From IMG/VR virus record IMGVR_UViG_3300028388_001230, positions 1 to 34,865 of that record: DNA of 34,865 nt; one strand, written 5' to 3'. Made by a program: the position numbers and the translations under genes. Within the stretch, counting starts at the first letter, position 1; each line of letters begins with the position of its first letter. This DNA comes from a virus. Shown here piece by piece: positions 2,479 to 30,103 of the stretch. The notes below the pieces were generated by a model. It was not told where the DNA came from, did no database searches, and was given only the letters and a program-made list of their open reading frames with translations.

Positions 2479-2961
2479 TTAAATAGGTCCATTACTTTCT
2501 CCAAAGGCTCCAGCTGGCACCTCCCAGGTGTCCTGGATCATAGGCTCATCAAATACCATGGCCTTGGCTTTCTCTACCAGGTCCTGGTTGCTGCAGTTAT
2601 CATAAGGCATACCCAGAGCTGCCTGCTGGTTTACAGTGTTCTGCCTGTGGATGGTCTTACCAAAGTCCTGCTCATAGTCTGCTATCTTATCAAAGCCAGC
2701 CCGGTCTATCTTCTTAATACTGGCCCACTGGTGGATAGATCCAAAAATACACTTCATACAGGACAGCCTTCCCCATCCCAGCCTATAAGCAGGGTGTGGG
2801 TTTATCTTATGTTTGCGGATCACTGTCCAGACCTGGTGCTCTTCCCAGTCGTGCACTGGTCTCCATTGGATGGTGGTCCTGGTCTTAGTGGTGGTCTTAT
2901 GTACTTGGATGGTCTTATACTTAGCCCTGGCTGGGCTCTCCTCTGCCCTCTCTCCGGACAC
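2479..2961 (-). pseudogene. C-terminal half of the frameshifted PAPS-reductase-family protein
   Basis: This reading frame continues the family domain begun at 3479 but in the -1 frame. It carries the rest of the Rossmann-like core (RILVVSGERAEESPARAKYK, whose first residues lie upstream of any start), the HDWEEHQVWTVIRKHKI helix and a CMKC cysteine pair before FGS. The only in-frame initiator is a GTG at 2959-2961, which would begin inside a conserved beta strand, so independent translation to a folded protein looks unlikely. It is more likely the downstream fragment of one broken gene, about 333 aa when joined. Confidence 0.75.
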
Positions 2962-2981
2962 TACCAGGATCCTCTTACCTC

Positions 2982-3479
2982 TCAGGCGCTCCTGTTAGAT
3001 ATGACAGACACGCAGGCCTCAATTTTCAGGTAGCTGCTGCACCATCTTGTCCGGAGATCTGCAGAGACCTGTGGAAACATTTGCCTGGTATTCTTGGGAC
3101 CATTGCCTCCGGAGATCCCACACTCTATCAGGTTGTCCTCTCCATTGACTGGGTATTCAAAGCGCACCGGAGCGGTGGCCTGGTTATTTCTTAACATCTC
3201 CCTCTCAAATCCTCCCTCTCTCCAGGAGTAGTAAATAGGTAGATTAAAATGCTCAGCCACTTTCCTGCAGTAGTCCTCAGTGATGGGCCAGTCCATCAGG
3301 GTGGATCCCTCTCTGCCATCTACCAGGTGGTGCCATAGCTCCAGCTTCTCCCTGGGGCAGCCATCATCCAGCATGAAGAGCAGGCAGGCCAGGCTATCCT
3401 TACCTCCAGAAAAGGCTAATACTATTCTATCATAGTCGCTGTAATTGATTCGCTCCGGTGTGTGTGCCTCTGTTTTCAT
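2982..3479 (-). pseudogene. N-terminal half of PAPS reductase / adenylyl-PPi-loop family protein (frameshifted)
   Basis: The 165-aa fragment carries the PP-loop SGGKDS at residues 24-29, which grips the pyrophosphate of an ATP or PAPS-like substrate in phosphoadenylylsulfate reductases and related sulfur or nucleotide-activating enzymes. It also has the RTRWCSSYLKI segment typical of this superfamily. The frame stops at TGA 2982-2984 in ...SNRSA. One extra base just upstream (AACCAGGAG in place of AACAGGAG) would restore SNQERLRGKRILVVSGERAE and join it to 2479-2961. The ATG at 3479 has the CA-rich leader used by neighbours. Phage members of this family are often of uncertain substrate, so actual PAPS reduction is not assured. 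Confidence 0.8.
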
Positions 3480-18468: not shown

Positions 18469-18620
18469 TTAGTTATCCGGTTTTCAGGTGTTTCCAGGAT
18501 CTTAATCTTTCCCTTTTTCTGCAGATCCTCAGCCTCAAAGTCTCTCAGGTGCATGGTCTGAGGTGGGACCAGGTAGCACCCGGAGTATGTAAAGGGCTCC
18601 ACTACCCTGCAGCGCTTCAT
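18465..18620 (-). CDS. Small protein (51 aa) between glycosyltransferase and connector
   Basis: A short gene with ATG at 18618-18620 overlapping the glycosyltransferase stop by one base (TGATG). Its TGA at 18465-18467 overlaps the connector ATG (ATGA). The product starts MKRCRVVEPFTYSGCYLVPP and ends basic and charged. Two Cys lie 12 residues apart. The beta-like N-terminus resembles the short proteins often seen next to head-tail connectors and tail adaptors. Both junctions are translationally coupled, which strongly supports a real gene. Function unknown. Confidence 0.75.
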   Translation of the reverse strand: MKRCRVVEPFTYSGCYLVPPQTMHLRDFEAEDLQKKGKIKILETPENRITK

Positions 18621-19603
18621 CACTTGGTCCTCCCCTTTATTGCTTTAATCATCAGGTCCTGGAGCACTTCCATTTGAGGATCAAATAGCTCCTCTAGCTC
18701 TGCAGCTCTTTTCCTGGCTGCATCGCTCCGCTCCTTATAGTAATCCTTATCCTCCAGGAGCTTTTTAATTTCATCCTCCCAGGCCTGCTGGTTGTCCAGT
18801 GGGTGGAAGATCCCGGCCTCTCCCAGGCTCTCCAGGAGCCCATCAGTGGGGTTGGCTATGGTAGGGATCCCTGAGGCTGCCGCTTCTATTGCAGTGCGCC
18901 CAAAGCTCTCATATTCGCTCGGCATCAGCAGGATCTTGGTCCTCTCGTAGGCCTTTTGGATCTTCGGAGTATTTTCTTTGTAGGTCACATTGGCCATCTT
19001 CTGCTTTTCCTGGTGGTAATAGCCACCCTTTACTGCCATGAATTTCACATCAGGCAGGGCCTTGGCCAGGTTGAAAAACATCTCAGATCCTTTGAGCTCA
19101 CAGTGGTTGATCAGGGTCACATGGCTGGCCCCTCCCCGGTTGGTCTTATAGTAATCCACCGGACAGGGTGGCTGCACTATACAGCTCTCCTTGTGGCCGT
19201 AAAAGGCCAGGCCTACCTGCTTGGTGTATTCAGAATTGTAGCACAATATAGACCTGTGGGCTATCTTCTGGATAGCGCTGTAGCGGTGTGTGTTGTGCTT
19301 GATAAACAAGGCCGGCATACCATCCACCTGGGGCCTCCGGATATTGTTTATAACCTTGCCCACCCGGTTTAAGTGACTGACTACGATATCAGCCCAGACA
19401 TAGTGGTTAATTACATGGATCTTGCCATACTCCGGGATTACCGGGATCCCTTCAAAGGTGTGCTCTTTTGCATCTCCTGCAGCTACCAGGATCTCATGGC
19501 CTTTAGCCTGGAGCCATTTCATCATATGGTGGACCATCCACTCAGCACCAGCATTGTGGTGGGGTGGGTATCCATGTACGTGCAGTAATATTTTCATTTT
19601 CAT
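18620..19603 (-). CDS. GT4-family (GT-B fold) glycosyltransferase
   Basis: A 327-aa retaining glycosyltransferase. The N-terminal domain opens with KILLHVHGYPPHHNAGAEW, the GT4 glycine-rich acceptor loop. The C-terminal domain carries the donor motif EYESFGRTAIEAAASGIPTI, whose Glu-x7-Glu pattern contacts the nucleotide sugar. It ends with the usual long helix (EDKDYYKERSDAARKRAAEL). No membrane span is evident. It lies with a SAM methyltransferase between the capsid and connector genes, a common cargo slot. It may glycosylate capsid or tail proteins, or host envelope glycans; the sequence does not say which. The start overlaps the methyltransferase stop (ATGA), and a second ATG two codons later has AGGAGG six bases upstream. 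Confidence 0.9.
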   Translation of the reverse strand: MKMKILLHVHGYPPHHNAGAEWMVHHMMKWLQAKGHEILVAAGDAKEHTFEGIPVIPEYGKIHVINHYVWADIVVSHLNRVGKVINNIRRPQVDGMPALFIKHNTHRYSAIQKIAHRSILCYNSEYTKQVGLAFYGHKESCIVQPPCPVDYYKTNRGGASHVTLINHCELKGSEMFFNLAKALPDVKFMAVKGGYYHQEKQKMANVTYKENTPKIQKAYERTKILLMPSEYESFGRTAIEAAASGIPTIANPTDGLLESLGEAGIFHPLDNQQAWEDEIKKLLEDKDYYKERSDAARKRAAELEELFDPQMEVLQDLMIKAIKGRTK

Positions 19604-20148
19604 CCTCCTGTTTTTAAATACTTATATACCAGCATTATCTCTCCCAGGACAGTGTGGTCTGCCGGCTTAACCAATTCCAGGCCGGCCTTTTCAGCCTGGC
19701 CATTGTTCCATAGGGATTTATGAACCTCGTATTTATTGCCCTTATAGGGTCCTTGCTTGATAAAGATCCCAGGGGTTGAGACCAGCAGGATCCCTGAGGG
19801 GCTTAGCCAGGTTTTGATCTTAGCTATCAGGGCCTGGCCTACAGCCTCATCCATGTGCTCAATCACATCAGCCATGATAATAACATCAAAGGTTCCAGGG
19901 GCGAACTCCACCAGGTTGACATCTTTGATAATTACCTCATGGTATAGCTCCCACATTGGATTCCTGTACTCTGGCCATGCTTCTATCCCTTTTATGACCG
20001 GGATCCATGGCATTAAGGTGGTAGCATAGTTATAGATCAGGGCCCCATACATGCCATTGCCTATACCTATATCCAGGACGCTCTGAGGCTTGCGCTTCAG
20101 GGTCTCCTCCAGGATAAAAGGGATCACTGCATGGCTGCTAATCGGCAT
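19600..20148 (-). CDS. Class I SAM-dependent methyltransferase
   Basis: A 182-aa Rossmann-fold methyltransferase. Motif I is VLDIGIGNGMYGALIYNY (SAM glycine loop DIGIGNG). A GIEAWPEYR segment sits at the acidic ribose-binding strand, and FDVIIMADVIEHMDE is motif IV with the IEHMDE block typical of small-molecule and sugar methyltransferases; SPSGILLVSTPG follows. It is coupled by ATGA to the glycosyltransferase, so the pair likely builds or decorates one glycan. It does not have the DPPY or PC motifs of DNA methyltransferases. A perfect hairpin terminator separates it from the capsid gene, so its expression should be lower than that of capsid. Confidence 0.88.
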   Translation of the reverse strand: MPISSHAVIPFILEETLKRKPQSVLDIGIGNGMYGALIYNYATTLMPWIPVIKGIEAWPEYRNPMWELYHEVIIKDVNLVEFAPGTFDVIIMADVIEHMDEAVGQALIAKIKTWLSPSGILLVSTPGIFIKQGPYKGNKYEVHKSLWNNGQAEKAGLELVKPADHTVLGEIMLVYKYLKTGG

Positions 20149-20262: not shown

Positions 20263-21522
20263 CTATGCAGTACCTTGTGCGAGAGCTACAGCAAAGTCTC
20301 CGGTAAGGATAGCGGTGGGCTTATAGACAGCCAGGGCCAGTCTCTTCTGGGCCCTTACGGTTACCATACCCTTAACAAAGTTATCCTCATTGTTTTTGCT
20401 GAACTCTATCAGGAGCTCTTTTTTGAAAAACACCTGTGCAGCCTCCCTGGAGTGGATCAAAAAGTCCCCTTCAGTCAAGGCTGTAGTAGTTACAATAGGC
20501 ACACCGGCCAGCTGTGGTGAAGCTACACCCAGGATCCATGGCAGGATATACTGGCCATTGCTATCCTTGGTAAGTGCAATTTTATAGAAATCTGCAGGGT
20601 GCAGCACTATAAAACTGGGCTGATATTCATCATCCACTACCTGACGCACACCATCCACCAGCACATCAATCCGCTGTACATTGGAGTCTGAAAGTGCATC
20701 ACTGTAAGCGGTTGCATTGGTTACCAGTCCGGACAGGTTTTGACCAGTTCCAGCTCCCTCCAGGATCTGCTCATCCTCAACCTTGTTGATCTTCCCTGGG
20801 AGCTTAGCCATAATGTAGGAGGTCATCCCTGCTACATCTTCCAGCATCTCCTCGGCCAGCATGATATACGCTGTAATCTTGCGCACGTTTGCAGTGCTGG
20901 CTGTCAGGTCAAAGTCATTCTGTGCGAACTCAGCCCCAGGCGCTGTCATAGTGGTGTTATCAGTTTCAGCGGTTTCCTTCACATACTCCACAGCGGTCAT
21001 ATTGGTGGTTCCCTGGAGGATCAGATCCCTGGCCCTGGCTTTACGCTCAGGATCAAAGTGGATCTCTGGCAGGTGCTCATACCCTGGTACATTGTTCGTA
21101 AATGTATTGGTAGGAGTCATATCGTCCTGCTTACGCTCCAGCTGCATGCCTTCCAGGTCCTTATCGGTCAGCTTAAAGCTAACAGATCCAGACTTTCTGT
21201 AGGTCTCTGCCACGTTGGCCTCGCTCAGCTTCTCATGGAATAGCCCTGCAAAGTTTTTCCTCTGCATCACCTTGTCAAAGCGGCCAGCCTTGGCCTCAAT
21301 CACATCCATCCGCTTGGTGTACTCCTCAAATTTCTCATTGTGGTCCTTCAGTAGGGTCTCCAGCTCGGTCTTCATCTTGCTGGTCATTTCTTTGGCCTCC
21401 TTGTGGCCCTCTTCCTGGATCTCCTTGTTGATCTTGTCAATCCTGGCATCTATCTGCTCACTCAGCCCGGCTATCTCTTGCTCCAGCTTTTTGGTCAGCA
21501 GCTCATTAACATCATTGCTCAT
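20263..21522 (-). CDS. Major capsid protein (HK97 fold)
   Basis: A 419-aa protein. The first ~100 residues are coiled-coil and charged (LLTKKLEQEIAGLSEQIDAR...), the delta-domain scaffold removed by the prohead protease. The mature part follows with GTTNMTAVEYVKETA, the E-loop/spine region, ITAYIMLAEEMLEDVAGMTS and the P-domain pattern EDEQILEGAGTGQNLSGLVT, then RIDVLVDGVRQVVDD...FIVLHPADFYKIALTKDSNG, all classic HK97 gp5-like blocks. The gene follows the protease by 5 nt. A strong hairpin follows it. Confidence 0.96.
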   Translation of the reverse strand: MSNDVNELLTKKLEQEIAGLSEQIDARIDKINKEIQEEGHKEAKEMTSKMKTELETLLKDHNEKFEEYTKRMDVIEAKAGRFDKVMQRKNFAGLFHEKLSEANVAETYRKSGSVSFKLTDKDLEGMQLERKQDDMTPTNTFTNNVPGYEHLPEIHFDPERKARARDLILQGTTNMTAVEYVKETAETDNTTMTAPGAEFAQNDFDLTASTANVRKITAYIMLAEEMLEDVAGMTSYIMAKLPGKINKVEDEQILEGAGTGQNLSGLVTNATAYSDALSDSNVQRIDVLVDGVRQVVDDEYQPSFIVLHPADFYKIALTKDSNGQYILPWILGVASPQLAGVPIVTTTALTEGDFLIHSREAAQVFFKKELLIEFSKNNEDNFVKGMVTVRAQKRLALAVYKPTAILTGDFAVALAQGTA

Positions 21523-21527
21523 GGTCT

Positions 21528-22259
21528 CTACTTATTTAAGTTATTAAAAATATTTCCCAGGTCAGGGATCTGTAGATCGGCTGGCTGGTCCTGGTCTCCA
21601 GTGGAGCCTCCCGGCTGGAGTGCCTTGATCAGGGCCTTATATTGTGCCTCAACCTGTTTTAATTGCAGCTCTAATAATACAAAAGTCTCATCTGAATATC
21701 CACCATTCCGGATGGATTTGGTCAGATTGTCTATTCTTTTTGCGAACTTTTCGCCCATATCATTGGCCTCCAGATCCTTGACGGAAACCGTAGGAGTCCA
21801 CTCATTTGCTCCCCAGGTTACAGTGGATCCCTCCCAGAGCAGGACCTCCTTTATCAGGCGGTGGTTTTGGTTGTTATCCCGTTCCTCCTTGACTACCTGG
21901 ATCCCTATACTGTGCTCATTGATTACTCCATCCTCATACAGCAGCAGGGTGTCTCTCCCGTAGGTGGTTTTGCTTACCTTACTCATGAAATAAAGCCCCT
22001 TGTTGTCCTCCCGGATGGTCCCCTCTTCGGTAAACCTGGACAGTGGCATAGTGGAATTGTGCTGCAGCAGGTGGTAGATCCTGGGGTTACTGGATCCAGG
22101 TCCCCTCTCCTGCAGTGTTTTCTTGAACGCTCCAGGGACTAGCTCATCATTGTCTGAGTCTACCACTCCCCAGGTGTTGAAATAGCCCTCAACTATTCCC
22201 CTCTTAGTGTCTACATCTTTGACTACAGCGTCAAAGGTTGCGGTTTTGTAATTTTCCAT
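21528..22259 (-). CDS. Prohead maturation protease (HK97-type, S78)
   Basis: A 243-aa serine protease that would cleave the capsid delta domain inside the prohead. The family opening is present (IVEGYFNTWGVVDSDNDELV, then PGAFKKTL). The catalytic His is H67 in HLLQHN and the nucleophile S117 in NEHSIGI. The C-terminal ~60 residues are charged and probably serve as a targeting tail, ending in DLQIPDLGNIFNNL. It lies directly upstream of the major capsid gene, as in HK97. Confidence 0.95.
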   Translation of the reverse strand: MENYKTATFDAVVKDVDTKRGIVEGYFNTWGVVDSDNDELVPGAFKKTLQERGPGSSNPRIYHLLQHNSTMPLSRFTEEGTIREDNKGLYFMSKVSKTTYGRDTLLLYEDGVINEHSIGIQVVKEERDNNQNHRLIKEVLLWEGSTVTWGANEWTPTVSVKDLEANDMGEKFAKRIDNLTKSIRNGGYSDETFVLLELQLKQVEAQYKALIKALQPGGSTGDQDQPADLQIPDLGNIFNNLNK

Positions 22260-22869: not shown

Positions 22870-23082
22870 CTAATATATTTCATCACTTTCCACTGCATCA
22901 AATCCCTCTATCAGGCCCTCATCTTTCAGCTTCTGGGCTGCCACGTATGCTCTGGACCTGTCCTGTGGGACCAGGCTCATCATAATCTCCAGGTGGGCCC
23001 TATCCAGCTCATTCTGGCAGGTCACTCCCTCTGTATCATCCAGGATGCACTCCTGGCCCATAAATTTAAAAATCACTCTCAT
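22870..23082 (-). CDS. Small acidic protein coupled to the MuF-metallopeptidase gene
   Basis: A 70-aa acidic protein whose ATG overlaps the stop of the 604-aa MuF gene by one base (TAATG). Residues 1-25 are beta-like with two Cys (KFMGQECILDDTEGVTCQNE); the rest is helical with an acidic end (DAVESDEIY). No domain is recognised. A small acidic gene directly and tightly behind a MuF protein with a C-terminal enzyme domain is where an inhibitor or immunity protein would be encoded. It could equally be a small head protein. Confidence 0.7.
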   Translation of the reverse strand: MRVIFKFMGQECILDDTEGVTCQNELDRAHLEIMMSLVPQDRSRAYVAAQKLKDEGLIEGFDAVESDEIY

Positions 23083-24896
23083 TATTCCAGGTTTTGTAAC
23101 TTAAATATAGTCTCCAGGCCCCAGTTGAAATAGTCCGGATCTGTTTGGATAAAGTAGCCAGGGTTTTCAATAAAGTGGGTCCACCACATGCTGAACACTT
23201 CAGTAGATCCCTGGCGTATGCTGGCCCCTTCAAACATCTGGTTTATACTGGTGCCTCCCCAGCCTGACTGGTAGTATCTGCCTGTATATGGATTGATAAA
23301 CTTATCCTCCCAGCAGCCCTCCCCGTGATAGCTTACTGTGCGCTCTCCCCACTTTATTCTCCGCTTTAAAAAGTCCTTTGTGGACTGGTGCAGCACTGCA
23401 CTGTTGTGCTCCACTGCATGGCCTGCCTCATGGCATACGGTGGCCGGGCCGCTGTCTCCAAACAGTTTAATATGGTTACCTCCACAGCTGGCCCTGCCTC
23501 TTTTTTTGTAGACCGTTGCTGAGATATTCACCTGGCCGGCATCACTAACCTGGCCCACTATCCGCTCAAATAGCTGGGTAGATCTTTTTCTTACAGCTCC
23601 CAGGTTTTTACTGCCCACTGAATAATCCACATTTGATCCCTTACCCAGATCCATGATATCAGCGAACTCCTCCAGGATATCATTCTGTGCATCCCAGGTA
23701 TCATATTGGGCCCTTTTATAGGCCTTATTTGTTTCCTCCCACTGGCTGATCAGGGCCCTCCTGGTCTGGGCCAGGCCCTCATCATATCCCTGCCCGGATC
23801 TTATTCTCCTATTGTGCCTCCTGGTTACCTCATTGGCTTCATCAGCCAGTTTATTCATCTTATCCACCAGCTCTCCCTCTTTGATCTGGGACTCCCTCAT
23901 CTTTTTAAAGGCCTTGCTCTTCTCTATCTCTCTGGCCTTTTTCTGGGCAGCCTTTATCCTTGCGGCCCTGGATCCCGGCCTGGTCCTTCCAGGTGGTGGA
24001 GGTGGTGGCTCTGGTGGTTGCTCTGGCCTGGGTGTAGGTGTATCAGGGGCCTCATCCACTACCTTGGGCTCGTAGTAAACGCTACACCTGCAGTGTATAA
24101 CATTGGCCCCATCTCCGCTGTAGTCACATGGATAATCCAGGGGCTCCCCGGTTTTTTGGAATTTCTCTTCCATCTCTACCTTTTCCCCATCCGGACCATT
24201 GGGGAAGGTGCCATAGTGGTCATAGGTTCCCCGGCCTCTCCTTCGCCTGGTCCTGGAGTCCCTGGTAGATAGCCAGACTTTCATCATGGGCTCCTTGGTC
24301 TCCCTGGCTCCGGTAATACTCCCCAGGTTGCTGGCCGCTGCAACCTCGGTCCTGGCTATCCTGGCAGCCCTGTATGTGCTTATATCTCCCCAGTCATCCC
24401 TCAGCCGGTCCCGGAGCAGCTGGGCTGTCTCGCTGGCCCCAGGTGGCCTGGTCTCCATGTTGATCTGGGCCAGGGTGCCCTGGATCACTCCCACAGCCTG
24501 GCGCTTGCTCTCTCCGGTTATAGCGGTGATCCGCTCCCCTGCCTTGGCATACAGCTGAGTCCAGACACGCTCCTGGAATTGTGCATTTGTAGGTATCTCA
24601 TTCTTGCGGATCCAGTCATCCCCTTTAACCTTGGCCATCATCTTGTAGATCTCCTGGGCAAAGTATGCACCCACTACCTTGACAGTGCGCTCATAGATCC
24701 CCTCCAGGGCATCCTCCCTGATCAGGCGCTCTACCCGGTCCTCTATACTGTTAACAGTTGAGGCATCAATCTCTTTAAGCACAGGCTGGATCTGCTCCAC
24801 CAGGGCGCTCTTCCATTCCCTGGTAAAGGCCCTTGTAAACCTGTCCCTCTTGGCCTGTGTTTTCTTCCACAGCCTTTGCCTTTGCCTCTCTGTCAT
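23082..24896 (-). CDS. MuF-type head morphogenesis protein fused to a zincin metallopeptidase domain
   Basis: A 604-aa two-part protein. The MuF minor head domain occupies about residues 95-275: ARTEVAAASNLGSITGARET, an Arg-rich WLSTRDSRTRRRRGRG, DYPCDYSGDGANVIHCRCSV with the NVIHCRC signature. A proline-rich hinge (283-308, including eight Pro in ten residues) and a basic helical spacer follow. The C-terminal ~175 residues carry CHEAGHAVEH at 488-497, the zinc site HExxH with catalytic Glu490, and a likely third ligand Glu566 in QGSTEVFSM. MuF proteins enter the prohead and some are ejected with DNA. An attached enzyme domain is the layout of MuF polymorphic toxins. Usual MuF proteins are about 250-350 aa, so this one has a clear extra enzyme. 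Confidence 0.93.
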   Translation of the reverse strand: MTERQRQRLWKKTQAKRDRFTRAFTREWKSALVEQIQPVLKEIDASTVNSIEDRVERLIREDALEGIYERTVKVVGAYFAQEIYKMMAKVKGDDWIRKNEIPTNAQFQERVWTQLYAKAGERITAITGESKRQAVGVIQGTLAQINMETRPPGASETAQLLRDRLRDDWGDISTYRAARIARTEVAAASNLGSITGARETKEPMMKVWLSTRDSRTRRRRGRGTYDHYGTFPNGPDGEKVEMEEKFQKTGEPLDYPCDYSGDGANVIHCRCSVYYEPKVVDEAPDTPTPRPEQPPEPPPPPPGRTRPGSRAARIKAAQKKAREIEKSKAFKKMRESQIKEGELVDKMNKLADEANEVTRRHNRRIRSGQGYDEGLAQTRRALISQWEETNKAYKRAQYDTWDAQNDILEEFADIMDLGKGSNVDYSVGSKNLGAVRKRSTQLFERIVGQVSDAGQVNISATVYKKRGRASCGGNHIKLFGDSGPATVCHEAGHAVEHNSAVLHQSTKDFLKRRIKWGERTVSYHGEGCWEDKFINPYTGRYYQSGWGGTSINQMFEGASIRQGSTEVFSMWWTHFIENPGYFIQTDPDYFNWGLETIFKLQNLE

Positions 24897-25051: not shown

Positions 25052-26455
25052 TTATTTATTGGTTAGGTGGTCCAGGTATTTATCCACTGCCTCCACATCC
25101 TGCAGGGCCTGGTCCATTGTTATCTTGTTTCCATCCACCCAGAGCTGGTCAGTACCAGGGGCCTCTAGGGGCTCATAGTCTAATACCTTCCTTTTCTCAT
25201 CCGGTGTCAGCATATCGGCATCCCTCAGCCAGTCCATCAGCTGCTTTATATCGGTCTGCAGCTCCGGGATGGCCTGGAGATCCATATCCAGCCAGTACTT
25301 TCTATTATCCCTCTTCTCAAAGCCAGGGATCCACCAGCGGTTTACCTCATCCCTCAGGCTCCTCATCTCCGGGATTACAGCCTGGGTGTAGGCTCCTGCC
25401 TTGGCCTCCTTGTAGGTGTTGTAAGTCTTGCTATCCGGATCATTAAAGAGCTGGGAGGCCAGTCCATAGATAGCGCACATCCTCCTGAGATCTACATTTT
25501 CCTGCTCTATGATCTTCAGATCTACAGGGCTCATGGCCATCTGCTGCCACTTGACAGCTGCACCGGTTACCATAATCTTGCCCCTGTTGTTAGCTCCTCC
25601 AAACTTCTGGTAATACTTGTGCTCTATCTGCTTGGCCTGGTCTGGAGTCAGGCTGCTGCCATCTTGTGCATCTCCCACATACCTGGACAGCATGCCCACA
25701 GCTCCCATGTTTTGTAGGCTCTTCACGCTGGCAGTTATACTATCGTTGCTCCTCTGTATCAGCCTGGATCCTGCCTGTAGTGGGCTCAGGCCATAGAGGC
25801 CTCCCATGCTGTAGGGTAGCGGATTCCAGCGCTTGCTATGCATCACATATTCCTTGGGGATCTTCTTGGTAGGATCTCCCAGCCAGTAATAGTGCGCCAG
25901 GGGCTCCATAGGGCTGCCATATTTAGCTCCAATGAACTGGGCAGGCAAGACATCCAGCTGGACAAACAGGCCGTTATTTGGCCCCGTTTCAGGTGCCAGG
26001 CCATGGATAAAGGTGTTGCCTGTAATCAGCTTGTATCCCAGGACCTGCTCTATAAACTCGCTTTGTGCCTGGAGCTCATTGGGTCTCTTCCAGATATCTA
26101 CCACATCATGCTGCTGGATAGGCTCCACTGCCTTGGTCTCCAGGATAGGGTAGCGGATCCTGTCTGTAGGATCCAGGTTTTTCCACCGGTTGAGGCTCTT
26201 GTCATCCTTCACCTCGTAAAAGGTCCAGGGGATCTGGGCAGCCAGCCTGGTCATATATCCCACTATCATATACACCAGGGGATTCCCCATGTATCCCTCG
26301 GTTACCAGCTCCTCCTTTTTCGTACTCATGAAGCTGGGAGCTCCTGCTCCATACATGGTGTCAGTAGTGCCATCATTGAAGGGTAGCCAGCTCTTTACTA
26401 TTGCATCCTGCACCCCTGGAGGTAGCAGCTTAGTCCATATGGATCTCTTTGTCAT
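25052..26455 (-). CDS. Portal protein (HK97-type)
   Basis: A 467-aa protein forming the dodecameric portal through which DNA enters and leaves. The recognisable pattern includes EGYMGNPLVYMIVGYMTRLA near residue 55, IYGLSPLQAGSR-like GLYGLSPLQAGSRLIQRSND, the GAVGMLSRYVGDAQDGSSLT block and QEN/VDLRRMCAIYGLASQLFN, all typical of HK97 gp3-like portals. Long charged helices end the protein. It overlaps terL by an ATGA junction, and the terL-portal-head order is standard. Confidence 0.95.
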   Translation of the reverse strand: MTKRSIWTKLLPPGVQDAIVKSWLPFNDGTTDTMYGAGAPSFMSTKKEELVTEGYMGNPLVYMIVGYMTRLAAQIPWTFYEVKDDKSLNRWKNLDPTDRIRYPILETKAVEPIQQHDVVDIWKRPNELQAQSEFIEQVLGYKLITGNTFIHGLAPETGPNNGLFVQLDVLPAQFIGAKYGSPMEPLAHYYWLGDPTKKIPKEYVMHSKRWNPLPYSMGGLYGLSPLQAGSRLIQRSNDSITASVKSLQNMGAVGMLSRYVGDAQDGSSLTPDQAKQIEHKYYQKFGGANNRGKIMVTGAAVKWQQMAMSPVDLKIIEQENVDLRRMCAIYGLASQLFNDPDSKTYNTYKEAKAGAYTQAVIPEMRSLRDEVNRWWIPGFEKRDNRKYWLDMDLQAIPELQTDIKQLMDWLRDADMLTPDEKRKVLDYEPLEAPGTDQLWVDGNKITMDQALQDVEAVDKYLDHLTNK

Positions 26456-27717
26456 ACCACAAAAAATGTATCTCGTTTAAGCATTAAATCTGTAACGGCC
26501 CAGACCATTGCATCTACCCGGTCCGGGCTTTTTTCTCCCTCGCTTGCTGCCCATGTTACCATCTGTGTCTCTAGCCTGGGCAAAGCACCTACATGCTTTA
26601 CCTTGTGCTGCTCATAGAGCGCCAGGATAGGCTCTGCCCTGGTTACCTTTCCCCTGGAGGCATGTACTTTGGTATAGCTTACTGATGGGTCTATGGTCCT
26701 GATCACTTGCTCAATCAGGTCCCCTCCATTGTTCACCTCTCCCAGGATCCTGTCGGCCTTGTTTACCTGGTAGGCCCCTATAGCTCTCCTGGCCCACTCA
26801 GTAGGTGTATAGATCCCACTCAGATCCTCCAGGATATAGCAGCGGCCATCCTCTCCCTTGCCGGCTACCACTATCCCAGTCTCATCACTGTCCTGGTTGC
26901 TGGTTACAGCTGGATCTATAGCTACCACTACCCGGACCAGGTTAGGGGCTTTATCCACCCTGGCCTCATCTATGTGCTTTTGCTTCCAGAGGGCTCCCTC
27001 CAGGTCCTCCAGGATCTCTGCATGGAGCTCCTGCCTCCCTATCCTGGTTCCTTCGTACTTGCTTATGATGGTATTCAGAAATGCATCAGCCAGGTTGGCC
27101 TTATTATCATAGGTGGATCCCCTGGTCACCACACTACTGTCAGCCTTTACCAGCTCCTTGATCAGCTTGATGGGCCTGGGTGTAGTTGTCACCAGGACCT
27201 GGGGATCCTGTCCCAGCCTGAGCCCCATCATGGCATTATCCCAGGCCTCATCAGCGTATTTCCAACTGGCAAGCTCATCCACCCACATCTTGTAACACTG
27301 TGGGCCCCTGAGTGCATCTGGCTCATCCGCTGAAAAGAGCACACCCTTGGCACCATTGGGCCAGGTTAGCCTCTTCTTGCTGGGCTCGTATTTTGGTCTA
27401 TTGTGATCAGGGTGGACTGCGAGGATCCCGGCTGGGCCCTCTATCATGGTATCCCTCATATCGGCAGCGGTCCTGCCTATCAGGTGTATAATCGGATGGC
27501 TGTCGCTCCAGATCCTTACGGTCTCAGCTCCGGTCCTGGTCTTGCCAAAGCCCCGGCCAGCTATTACCAGCCAGGTGGTCCAGTCTCCAGGTGGGAGCTT
27601 CTGGGCATCCCTGGCCTGTAGTGTCCACCGGTAGCTTACCTCAGTCAGCAGAGCCTCCAGCTCCTGCCTGTCCGGTGCGCTTAACGACTGCAACAATTCT
27701 GCTGATAAGTTCATCAT
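26452..27717 (-). CDS. terL: Terminase large subunit
   Basis: A 421-aa packaging motor and nuclease. The ATPase domain has Walker A AGRGFGKTR at 53-61, Walker B MWVDE at 144-148 and the coupling motif LVTTTPRP near 175-182. The nuclease domain has Asp268 in VVAIDPAV, an acidic LGEVNNGGD around 325-333 and Asp402 in RVDAMVWAVTDL. The order and spacing fit HK97-type terminases. The ORF begins 77 nt inside terS; ATG at 27717 or the adjacent codon are both possible, with the shared reading of two frames in that stretch. No large insertion or intein is seen. Confidence 0.96.
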   Translation of the reverse strand: MMNLSAELLQSLSAPDRQELEALLTEVSYRWTLQARDAQKLPPGDWTTWLVIAGRGFGKTRTGAETVRIWSDSHPIIHLIGRTAADMRDTMIEGPAGILAVHPDHNRPKYEPSKKRLTWPNGAKGVLFSADEPDALRGPQCYKMWVDELASWKYADEAWDNAMMGLRLGQDPQVLVTTTPRPIKLIKELVKADSSVVTRGSTYDNKANLADAFLNTIISKYEGTRIGRQELHAEILEDLEGALWKQKHIDEARVDKAPNLVRVVVAIDPAVTSNQDSDETGIVVAGKGEDGRCYILEDLSGIYTPTEWARRAIGAYQVNKADRILGEVNNGGDLIEQVIRTIDPSVSYTKVHASRGKVTRAEPILALYEQHKVKHVGALPRLETQMVTWAASEGEKSPDRVDAMVWAVTDLMLKRDTFFVV

Positions 27718-29471: not shown

Positions 29472-29485
29472 TTGTAAATTTACAA
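29472..29485. promoter_or_regulatory. 14-bp palindrome at the lipoprotein start
   Basis: TTGTAAATTTACAA is a perfect palindrome two bases upstream of the lipoprotein ATG, overlapping the sulfotransferase stop. Its minus strand also contains TAAATTTA, a seven-of-eight match to the Bacteroidota -7 element, without a good -33 box. It could be an operator for separate control of the lipoprotein. Confidence 0.35.
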
Positions 29486-30103
29486 TTTTTCACGTTCATA
29501 TCCTATCTGTTTAATTATCTCATAATGCTCCAGGTCCCTGGCCACCCATCCATCACAGGCCAGGGATGAGCCTCCTGTCATATCCTGCAACGGTTGCTTG
29601 TTTTGCCAGGTCCTAAACTCCATATGCTTTGCCCTGGGTGGTGGATCCTCCCAGTCAGGTGCCTGGAGAACTTTATCCAGGCTGGGTCTGGAGATCCCGG
29701 CCCATTTCATGCAGTCTATAAGATCCTGGCGGCTACTCATCAGGCGCTCATATTTGACCGGCAATATATCCAGCCGGCTGTGGGCCTCCTTCCAAGCTGT
29801 GGCATACTGCAGATAATCCTTGACCTGGTGGTGGTGGATATCCTTCCACTTTTCCCCAAAGCGTAAACGAATAGATCCAAAGATATCCCAGGGGTTTTTT
29901 ATGATCATGATCCGCTTACAGCCTGGGTATTCATGGATAGGTAGGCCTGTAAATTTCCAGACCAGGTGCTGGTAGCTGCCATCTACTATCCCAGGCGCAT
30001 AGGTTTCCCGAAGGATCTCCAGCACACCCTCCTGGGATCCTATAACCCTGCGGAGTATGCTGGTGCCACTGTGTGGAAATCCATTAATAACAATTTTATT
30101 CAT
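29480..30103 (-). CDS. Sulfotransferase (PAPS-dependent, P-loop fold)
   Basis: A 207-aa enzyme expected to move sulfate from PAPS to a sugar, peptide or other acceptor. The 5'-phosphosulfate loop is GFPHSGTSILRRVIG at residues 8-22 (the family's P-x-SGT-[ST] motif). The 3'-phosphate site is KNPWDIFGSIRLRF at 69-82, with the expected Arg/Lys-x-P-x-D...S...R spacing. The length is near the short prokaryotic members. No signal peptide is present. A PAPS-reductase-family gene sits in the same operon. Target unknown: host surface glycan or virion decoration are both possible. The gene is preceded by the same 16-base leader that precedes the 66-aa gene upstream. Confidence 0.9.
   Translation of the reverse strand: MNKIVINGFPHSGTSILRRVIGSQEGVLEILRETYAPGIVDGSYQHLVWKFTGLPIHEYPGCKRIMIIKNPWDIFGSIRLRFGEKWKDIHHHQVKDYLQYATAWKEAHSRLDILPVKYERLMSSRQDLIDCMKWAGISRPSLDKVLQAPDWEDPPPRAKHMEFRTWQNKQPLQDMTGGSSLACDGWVARDLEHYEIIKQIGYEREKL

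What the first reader, a model, noticed from the sequence alone, without database searches (positions are those of the whole stretch)
23082..24896. MuF head protein fused to a zincin metallopeptidase: candidate phage-delivered effector
The MuF domain (residues ~95-275) is joined by a proline-rich hinge to a C-terminal domain with HExxH (489-493) and a probable third zinc ligand (Glu566). MuF proteins are packaged in the prohead, and family members with extra C-terminal enzyme domains are known as MuF polymorphic toxins. This architecture implies a peptidase carried in the virion, either ejected into the host or used inside the capsid. The domain itself does not look like any M-family I can name.
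Basis: partly seen in the sequence, partly recalled or inferred. Interest (0 to 1): 0.8.

Follow-up and report, generated by a model that had tools for sequence, protein, structure and literature searches.

The report
Phage head-protein protease with small partner
This phage gene encodes a head protein carrying a zinc-protease domain related to one packaged by phage P1, and the protease gene is almost always followed by a tiny acidic gene whose protein ends in the same few residues, which makes that tiny protein a strong candidate for the protease's built-in inhibitor.

Summary
The gene lies on the minus strand (24896→23082, 604 aa): MuF head domain, proline-rich hinge, helical linker, C-terminal gluzincin with HExxH (489-493) and Glu566. 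Relatives keep HExxH and this Glu. AlphaFold2 gives zincin topology. The domain has no Pfam or NCBIfam model, but leave-one-out profiles group it with the C-terminal domain of phage P1 DdrB, so it belongs to the 'polyvalent protein' metallopeptidases published in 2017. MuF-metallopeptidase fusions were also reported in 2017. That part is not new.

New here: 158 of 179 zincin genes (88%) are directly followed by a 45-130 aa, mostly acidic ORF (control genes 25%). Two thirds of these end in Tyr or Phe (controls 6%), consensus G/D-x-V/I-Y. In the window this is 22870-23082 (70 aa, pI 4.3, ends DEIY). Five MuF relatives without the zincin lack the ORF; most zincins without MuF keep it (P1 ddrB-hxr included); three loci have it inverted but abutting. 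I propose that it is the cognate inhibitor, possibly with its C-terminus in the active site; this is inferred. Delivery into the host is plausible (DdrB is in P1 virions) but unshown for this phage.

The parts
23082..24896 (-). MuF-gluzincin head protein, 604 aa
24069..24845 (-). MuF head-morphogenesis region, residues 18-276 (Pfam MuF core residues 158-273)
   Evidence: phrog_2468 E 9e-30; PF04233 E 4e-4
23979..24050 (-). proline-rich hinge, about residues 283-306
   Evidence: sequence
23655..23978 (-). charged, probably helical linker, about residues 307-414
   Evidence: sequence; phrog_33618 match 310-592
23085..23654 (-). gluzincin domain, residues 415-604
   Evidence: AF2 model; family alignment; leave-one-out HMM E 5e-32
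23418..23432 (-). HExxH motif, residues 489-493
23199..23201 (-). Glu566, predicted third zinc ligand
   Evidence: invariant in 70 of 70
23493..23495 (-). Arg468, near-invariant residue before the HExxH helix
   Evidence: 97% of 70 homologues
22870..23082 (-). downstream partner gene, 70 aa, net charge -8, pI 4.34; its ATG overlaps the zincin stop (TAATG); candidate cognate inhibitor
22873..22881 (-). C-terminal Glu-Ile-Tyr of the partner, matching the family tail signature
25052..26455 (-). portal protein (context)
   Evidence: PF04860 E 3.5e-44
26452..27717 (-). terminase large subunit (context)
   Evidence: PF03237 E 1e-23
21528..22259 (-). prohead serine protease S78 (context: a separate, conventional maturation protease)
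   Evidence: PF04586 E 1e-24
20263..21522 (-). major capsid protein (context)
   Evidence: PF05065 E 5e-36

Best explanation
A two-gene cargo module. Gene 1 is a minor head protein whose MuF part anchors it at the portal or prohead. Its C-terminal gluzincin travels in the capsid and acts on protein after DNA ejection, or on its own chain or internal head proteins in the particle. Gene 2, translationally coupled by a TAATG overlap, makes a small acidic cognate partner that binds the zincin and keeps it silent in the producing cell. Its conserved C-terminal tail (G/D-x-V/I-Y/F-COOH) probably docks in or near the active-site cleft. Shown: both genes, zincin motifs and predicted fold, family-wide conservation, specific linkage of partner to zincin, tail signature. 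Inferred: packaging, ejection, inhibition, tail docking.
For: HExxH and Glu566 conserved in the relatives examined, so the enzyme is under selection; zincin topology in the AF2 model. MuF domain in 125 of 179 by a local HMM and in 42 of 64 by Pfam. Partner ORF after 158 of 179 zincin genes against 166 of 665 control genes (Fisher p 2e-55); Y/F tail in 106 of 158 against 10 of 166 (p 3e-33). It tracks the zincin and not MuF: five MuF relatives without zincin lack it while BpsS-36 and GBK1, same MuF family plus zincin, have it; 29 of 42 MuF-less zincins have it, including P1 ddrB-hxr and Vibrio K469. About half of the exceptions are tandem zincins with a partner elsewhere in the array, and a few have an extended next gene that begins like a partner. 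In three loci the partner is on the opposite strand, convergent, 3' ends overlapping. [quoted passage not shown] the name Hxr occurs nowhere in the main text or tables of that virion proteome paper, as expected of a producer-cell inhibitor.
Against: No binding, inhibition, proteolysis or toxicity was tested. The AF2 model of a natural read-through zincin-partner chain (L052) folds both parts well (pLDDT 92.4) but pTM is 0.73 and no coordinates could be inspected, so the docking is unproven. The window's own partner is linked to the family by position, size, charge and tail, only marginally by sequence (hhalign E 9e-4, probability 9-20%). P1 Hxr and the streptococcal partners are not linked by profile at all. 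Six or seven zincin genes have no partner I could find. The closest isolated relative, pippi8-1, is a lytic phage (PMC7077304), so immunity of a lysogen cannot be the general reason.
Confidence: 0.5

Rival explanations
1. Self-processing protease: the zincin cuts its own chain (at the hinge) or internal head proteins during maturation, as proposed for P1 DdrB, and the partner times that cut.
For: P1 DdrB is reported as processed before packaging and autoproteolysis by this domain was proposed (PMC5512222); proline-rich hinge between MuF and zincin.
Against: The phage already has an S78 prohead protease; the zincin occurs on many unrelated N-termini and as short near-stand-alone genes, which does not fit a single internal substrate; nothing was tested.
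Confidence: 0.25
2. The partner is a co-packaged cofactor or loading chaperone that escorts or activates the zincin, not an inhibitor.
For: Tight coupling and one-to-one neighbourhood fit a chaperone as well as an inhibitor.
Against: Inverted partner genes in three loci imply separate expression; Hxr is not mentioned in the P1 virion proteome paper, though a 102-aa protein can be missed; partners diverge fast, like immunity proteins.
Confidence: 0.2
3. Classical toxin-immunity: the zincin kills or arrests rival or newly infected cells and the partner protects lysogens.
For: MuF polymorphic toxin precedent with small downstream ORFs in 89% (PMC5576092); inverted partners could be expressed from a prophage.
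Against: Found in lytic isolates such as pippi8-1; no toxicity data; no lysogeny gene noticed in the window.
Confidence: 0.2
4. The downstream ORF is just a conserved late head gene with no tie to the zincin.
For: It sits in the late operon in most loci.
Against: Absent from five zincin-less relatives with the same MuF and present next to zincins without MuF; C-terminal signature rare in control ORFs.
Confidence: 0.05

Closest known systems
Phage P1 DdrB C-terminal metallopeptidase domain, and hxr behind ddrB
   Same: Same zincin family (leave-one-out HMM E 2e-17); same order, zincin gene followed by a small acidic gene ending in IVY; DdrB is in the virion (PMC9024508).
   Different: DdrB has a ParB-like N-terminus, no MuF; Hxr is not sequence-linked to the other partners and is annotated as a possible repressor.
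Polyvalent-protein zincin MPTases (PMC5512222)
   Same: HExxH plus Glu on a later helix, virion-linked, in proteins that combine with many other domains; MuF is a hub of the same domain network.
   Different: That paper proposes autoprocessing or effector action; I found no mention of a partner gene in the passages read.
MuF polymorphic toxins (PMC5576092)
   Same: MuF plus variable C-terminal enzyme plus small downstream ORF; metallopeptidases are 20% of that set.
   Different: Whether their metallopeptidases are this family could not be checked (supplement closed); here the partner has a family-wide C-terminal signature and also follows MuF-less zincins.
Apk2-IapK-Aph1 of a pneumococcal prophage (PMC12226406)
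   Same: MuF toxin with a downstream protein that blocks the active site.
   Different: Nucleotide pyrophosphokinase, not a peptidase; partner unrelated.
Flavobacterium phage pippi8-1 gp28-gp29
   Same: MuF + zincin (32% identity over the domain, E 9e-13) followed by a 70-aa ORF ending KEIY.
   Different: Myovirus with a different neighbourhood; gp29 is not alignable with confidence to the window's partner.

Membership tests
Zincin / gluzincin superfamily | HExxH on a helix | tested here: met
Zincin / gluzincin superfamily | Glu zinc ligand on a later helix | tested here: met
   Glu566 invariant and at the start of predicted helix 152-163 of the model
Zincin / gluzincin superfamily | Fold matches solved zincins | tested here: inconclusive
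   Foldseek against PDB: many of the best hits are gluzincins (M1, lethal-factor type, PprI, M61) but best E is 0.23; against viral models E 7e-8 to unnamed phage proteins
Zincin / gluzincin superfamily | Zinc binding and proteolysis | not testable with these tools
   needs purified protein
DdrB-type polyvalent MPTase | Sequence homology to the DdrB C-terminal domain | tested here: met
   leave-one-out HMM finds P1 DdrB at E 2e-17
DdrB-type polyvalent MPTase | Packaged in the virion | not testable with these tools
   true for P1 DdrB (PMC9024508); not known for this phage
MuF polymorphic toxin | N-terminal MuF domain | tested here: met
MuF polymorphic toxin | Small ORF directly downstream | tested here: met
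   22870-23082, TAATG overlap
MuF polymorphic toxin | Temperate phage | tested here: inconclusive
   34.9-kb virus record, no integrase noticed among the ORFs read; closest isolate is lytic
MuF polymorphic toxin | Toxic C-terminus neutralised by the partner | not testable with these tools
   needs a co-expression assay
Zincin-partner family (this report) | Acidic ORF under 130 aa directly behind a zincin gene, C-terminal V/I-Y/F | tested here: met
   window partner: 70 aa, pI 4.34, ends DEIY
Zincin-partner family (this report) | Sequence homology to the other partners | tested here: inconclusive
   hhalign to core profile E 9e-4 full length but probability 9-20%

The most novel reading that the evidence does not exclude
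The zincin cargo of many phages, P1 included, is controlled by one widespread, fast-changing class of small proteins whose most fixed feature is a C-terminal V/I-Y/F carboxylate that plugs the zincin active site in the producing cell and is left behind at packaging, so that the protease wakes only after ejection.
Probability: 0.3. Interest if true: 0.75.

Novelty: new variant of a known kind. Interest (0 to 1): 0.55.

Why it matters
The protease half was already described in kind, but I found no account of what keeps it quiet. A partner recognisable by its last few residues would give a simple handle on hundreds of phage cargo proteases, and P1 ddrB-hxr in E. coli makes the idea testable in a standard laboratory phage.

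Tried and rejected
Search with the whole protein found no locus; the first wide alignment gave no usable pattern. The genome search does not draw relatives for a virus record. Aligning partner-only rows with fused rows misplaced them, so the fused AF2 alignment used natural in-frame read-through rows, zincin-only rows and a few partner rows that aligned well. The HMM hit of the zincin profile to aristolochene synthase is a chance HELGH match. Polyubiquitin hits of the partner profile (E 7e-4 summed over repeats, no single stretch passing) were not taken as homology. Foldseek of the fused model gave nothing convincing for the partner. The window partner has no match in 50,697 phage records. Association of tail type with zincin columns put Arg468 first, but with few exceptions and shared ancestry this is only a hint. 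'Ordinary late gene' was considered for the partner and rejected on the controls.

Full report
WHAT IS THERE. The finding's ORF is real, 604 aa, on the minus strand (24896 to 23082), in a head operon: terminase, portal, this gene, a 70-aa ORF, a 198-aa ORF, S78 prohead protease, major capsid protein. The window is a 34,865-base IMG/VR virus record. Residues 18-276 match a head-morphogenesis PHROG (E 9e-30), and the Pfam MuF model matches 158-273 below its cut-off. Then come a proline-rich hinge, a charged linker and the C-terminal domain with HEAGH (489-493) and Glu566.

IT IS A ZINCIN. In 70 non-redundant homologues His489, Glu490, His493, Tyr537, Tyr542 and Glu566 are invariant and Arg468, Glu496, Glu526, Gly539 and Asp586 nearly so. 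In the larger set all 179 contain HExxH; eight failed a simple regular expression for the Glu motif, seven of which show the Glu on inspection, and one (L085) carries a further C-terminal extension beyond the stretch printed. HExxH conservation is partly built in by the search patterns; Glu566 is not. The best solved-structure matches include many gluzincins but none is significant; viral models match at E 7e-8. No Pfam or NCBIfam model fits; PHROGs families cover it, mostly without a function.

WHAT FAMILY. Leave-one-out profiles recover P1 DdrB (E 2e-17), Vibrio K469 (8e-29), the lactococcal and streptococcal phage proteins and the window itself (5e-32). So this is the DdrB-type metallopeptidase of the polyvalent-protein paper (PMC5512222), and MuF-metallopeptidase proteins were already counted in PMC5576092.

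THE PARTNER. Looking beyond the coordinates, the gene right behind the zincin proved the most informative part. Over 336 loci (plus phage records) I took 179 non-redundant zincin genes with at least 420 nt downstream: 158 are followed within -20..+30 nt by an ORF of 45-130 aa, most often with an ATGA-type overlap (64 at -4). Control genes in the same loci: 166 of 665. The ORF ends in Y or F in 106 of 158 against 10 of 166 controls. Consensus of the end: P/E - P/E/K - G/D - V/A/R - V/I - Y/F; median net charge -6. The control set consists of long ORFs chosen mechanically, so it contains some spurious genes. In the window the partner starts on the last base of the zincin stop codon (TAATG).

SPECIFICITY. 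Five phages with the same MuF family but no zincin (Jayan, MVC_VPHSA2, 019DV002, Blastoid, Andromeda) have no such ORF, while BpsS-36 and GBK1, with zincin, do. A MuF-ART gene (phiFL4A) is followed by a different protein without the tail. MuF-less zincins have the partner in 29 of 42 cases, MuF zincins in 118 of 125. Among the 21 without a direct partner, about ten lie in tandem zincin arrays that hold a partner elsewhere, a few have an extended next gene that begins like a partner, one partner starts just outside my search range, and six or seven remain unexplained. In L037, L042 and L122 the partner is on the opposite strand, convergent, with its 3' end overlapping the zincin stop.

IS THE PARTNER ONE FAMILY? 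Most groups are linked by profile comparison (core-pippi clade E 4e-7; FFD-GPVG 2e-6; GPVG-gamma 2e-8; core-FFD 4e-5; core-GPVG 9e-5; pairwise E-values). The streptococcal type and P1 Hxr are not, and the window's own partner only weakly (E 9e-4, probability 9-20%). For these, membership rests on position, size, charge and tail. No Pfam, NCBIfam or convincing PDB relative was found; PHROGs has a few unnamed families.

HOW IT MIGHT WORK. A dedicated small protein made beside a protease, tied to it through many changes of the rest of the protein, is best read as its inhibitor. A fixed C-terminal end on an otherwise fast-changing body suggests that the end itself is what the zincin recognises; Arg468, nearly invariant, could bind the carboxylate (inference; one search is only a hint). 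AF2 of a natural in-frame read-through (L052) folds both parts with high confidence and gives the tail pLDDT about 80, but pTM 0.73 and lack of coordinates leave the docking open. [quoted passage not shown] the name Hxr does not occur in the main text or tables of PMC9024508. Both ddrB and hxr are non-essential (PMC10695390).

LIMITS. Nothing was measured. Virion presence, ejection, target, inhibition and toxicity are all inferred for the window's phage. The supplement of the MuF toxin paper could not be opened, so I cannot say whether its metallopeptidases are this family, and my literature check for a named partner was limited to the held library.

Noticed in passing
window 2479-3479 (-): A PAPS-reductase-like gene appears split into two adjacent ORFs; possible frameshift, sequencing error or decayed gene.
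   Followed up: partly
window 18620-20148 (-): A group-1 glycosyltransferase and a SAM methyltransferase sit between the capsid gene and the head-tail genes, unusual for a head module.
   Followed up: partly
window 29480-30103 (-): Sulfotransferase-like protein upstream of the packaging genes, weak Pfam match.
   Followed up: partly
L037, L042, L122: Partner gene inverted, convergent with the zincin gene, 3' ends overlapping by a few bases.
   Followed up: yes
L004, L024, L026, L033: PaV-LD-like cyanophage records carry tandem zincins with a shared N-terminal leader (TSYNCG..CINV), seen in similar form on PaV-LD ORF085; candidate virion-targeting tag.
   Followed up: partly
L019, L048, L104, L307: MuF-less zincins share an N-terminal leader of the form GN(F/Y/W)xHxGxxGxxGGSxP.
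   Followed up: no
L049:915-5330: A 1472-aa zincin protein; one member of the set matches a portal model and one matches intein/homing-endonuclease models, and L049's length suggests it may be a portal-zincin fusion, perhaps with an intein.
   Followed up: no
L099 (Streptococcus phage IPP26): Its MuF protein ends in a different HExxH domain (HEVIH) followed by a 63-aa ORF without the tail signature.
   Followed up: no
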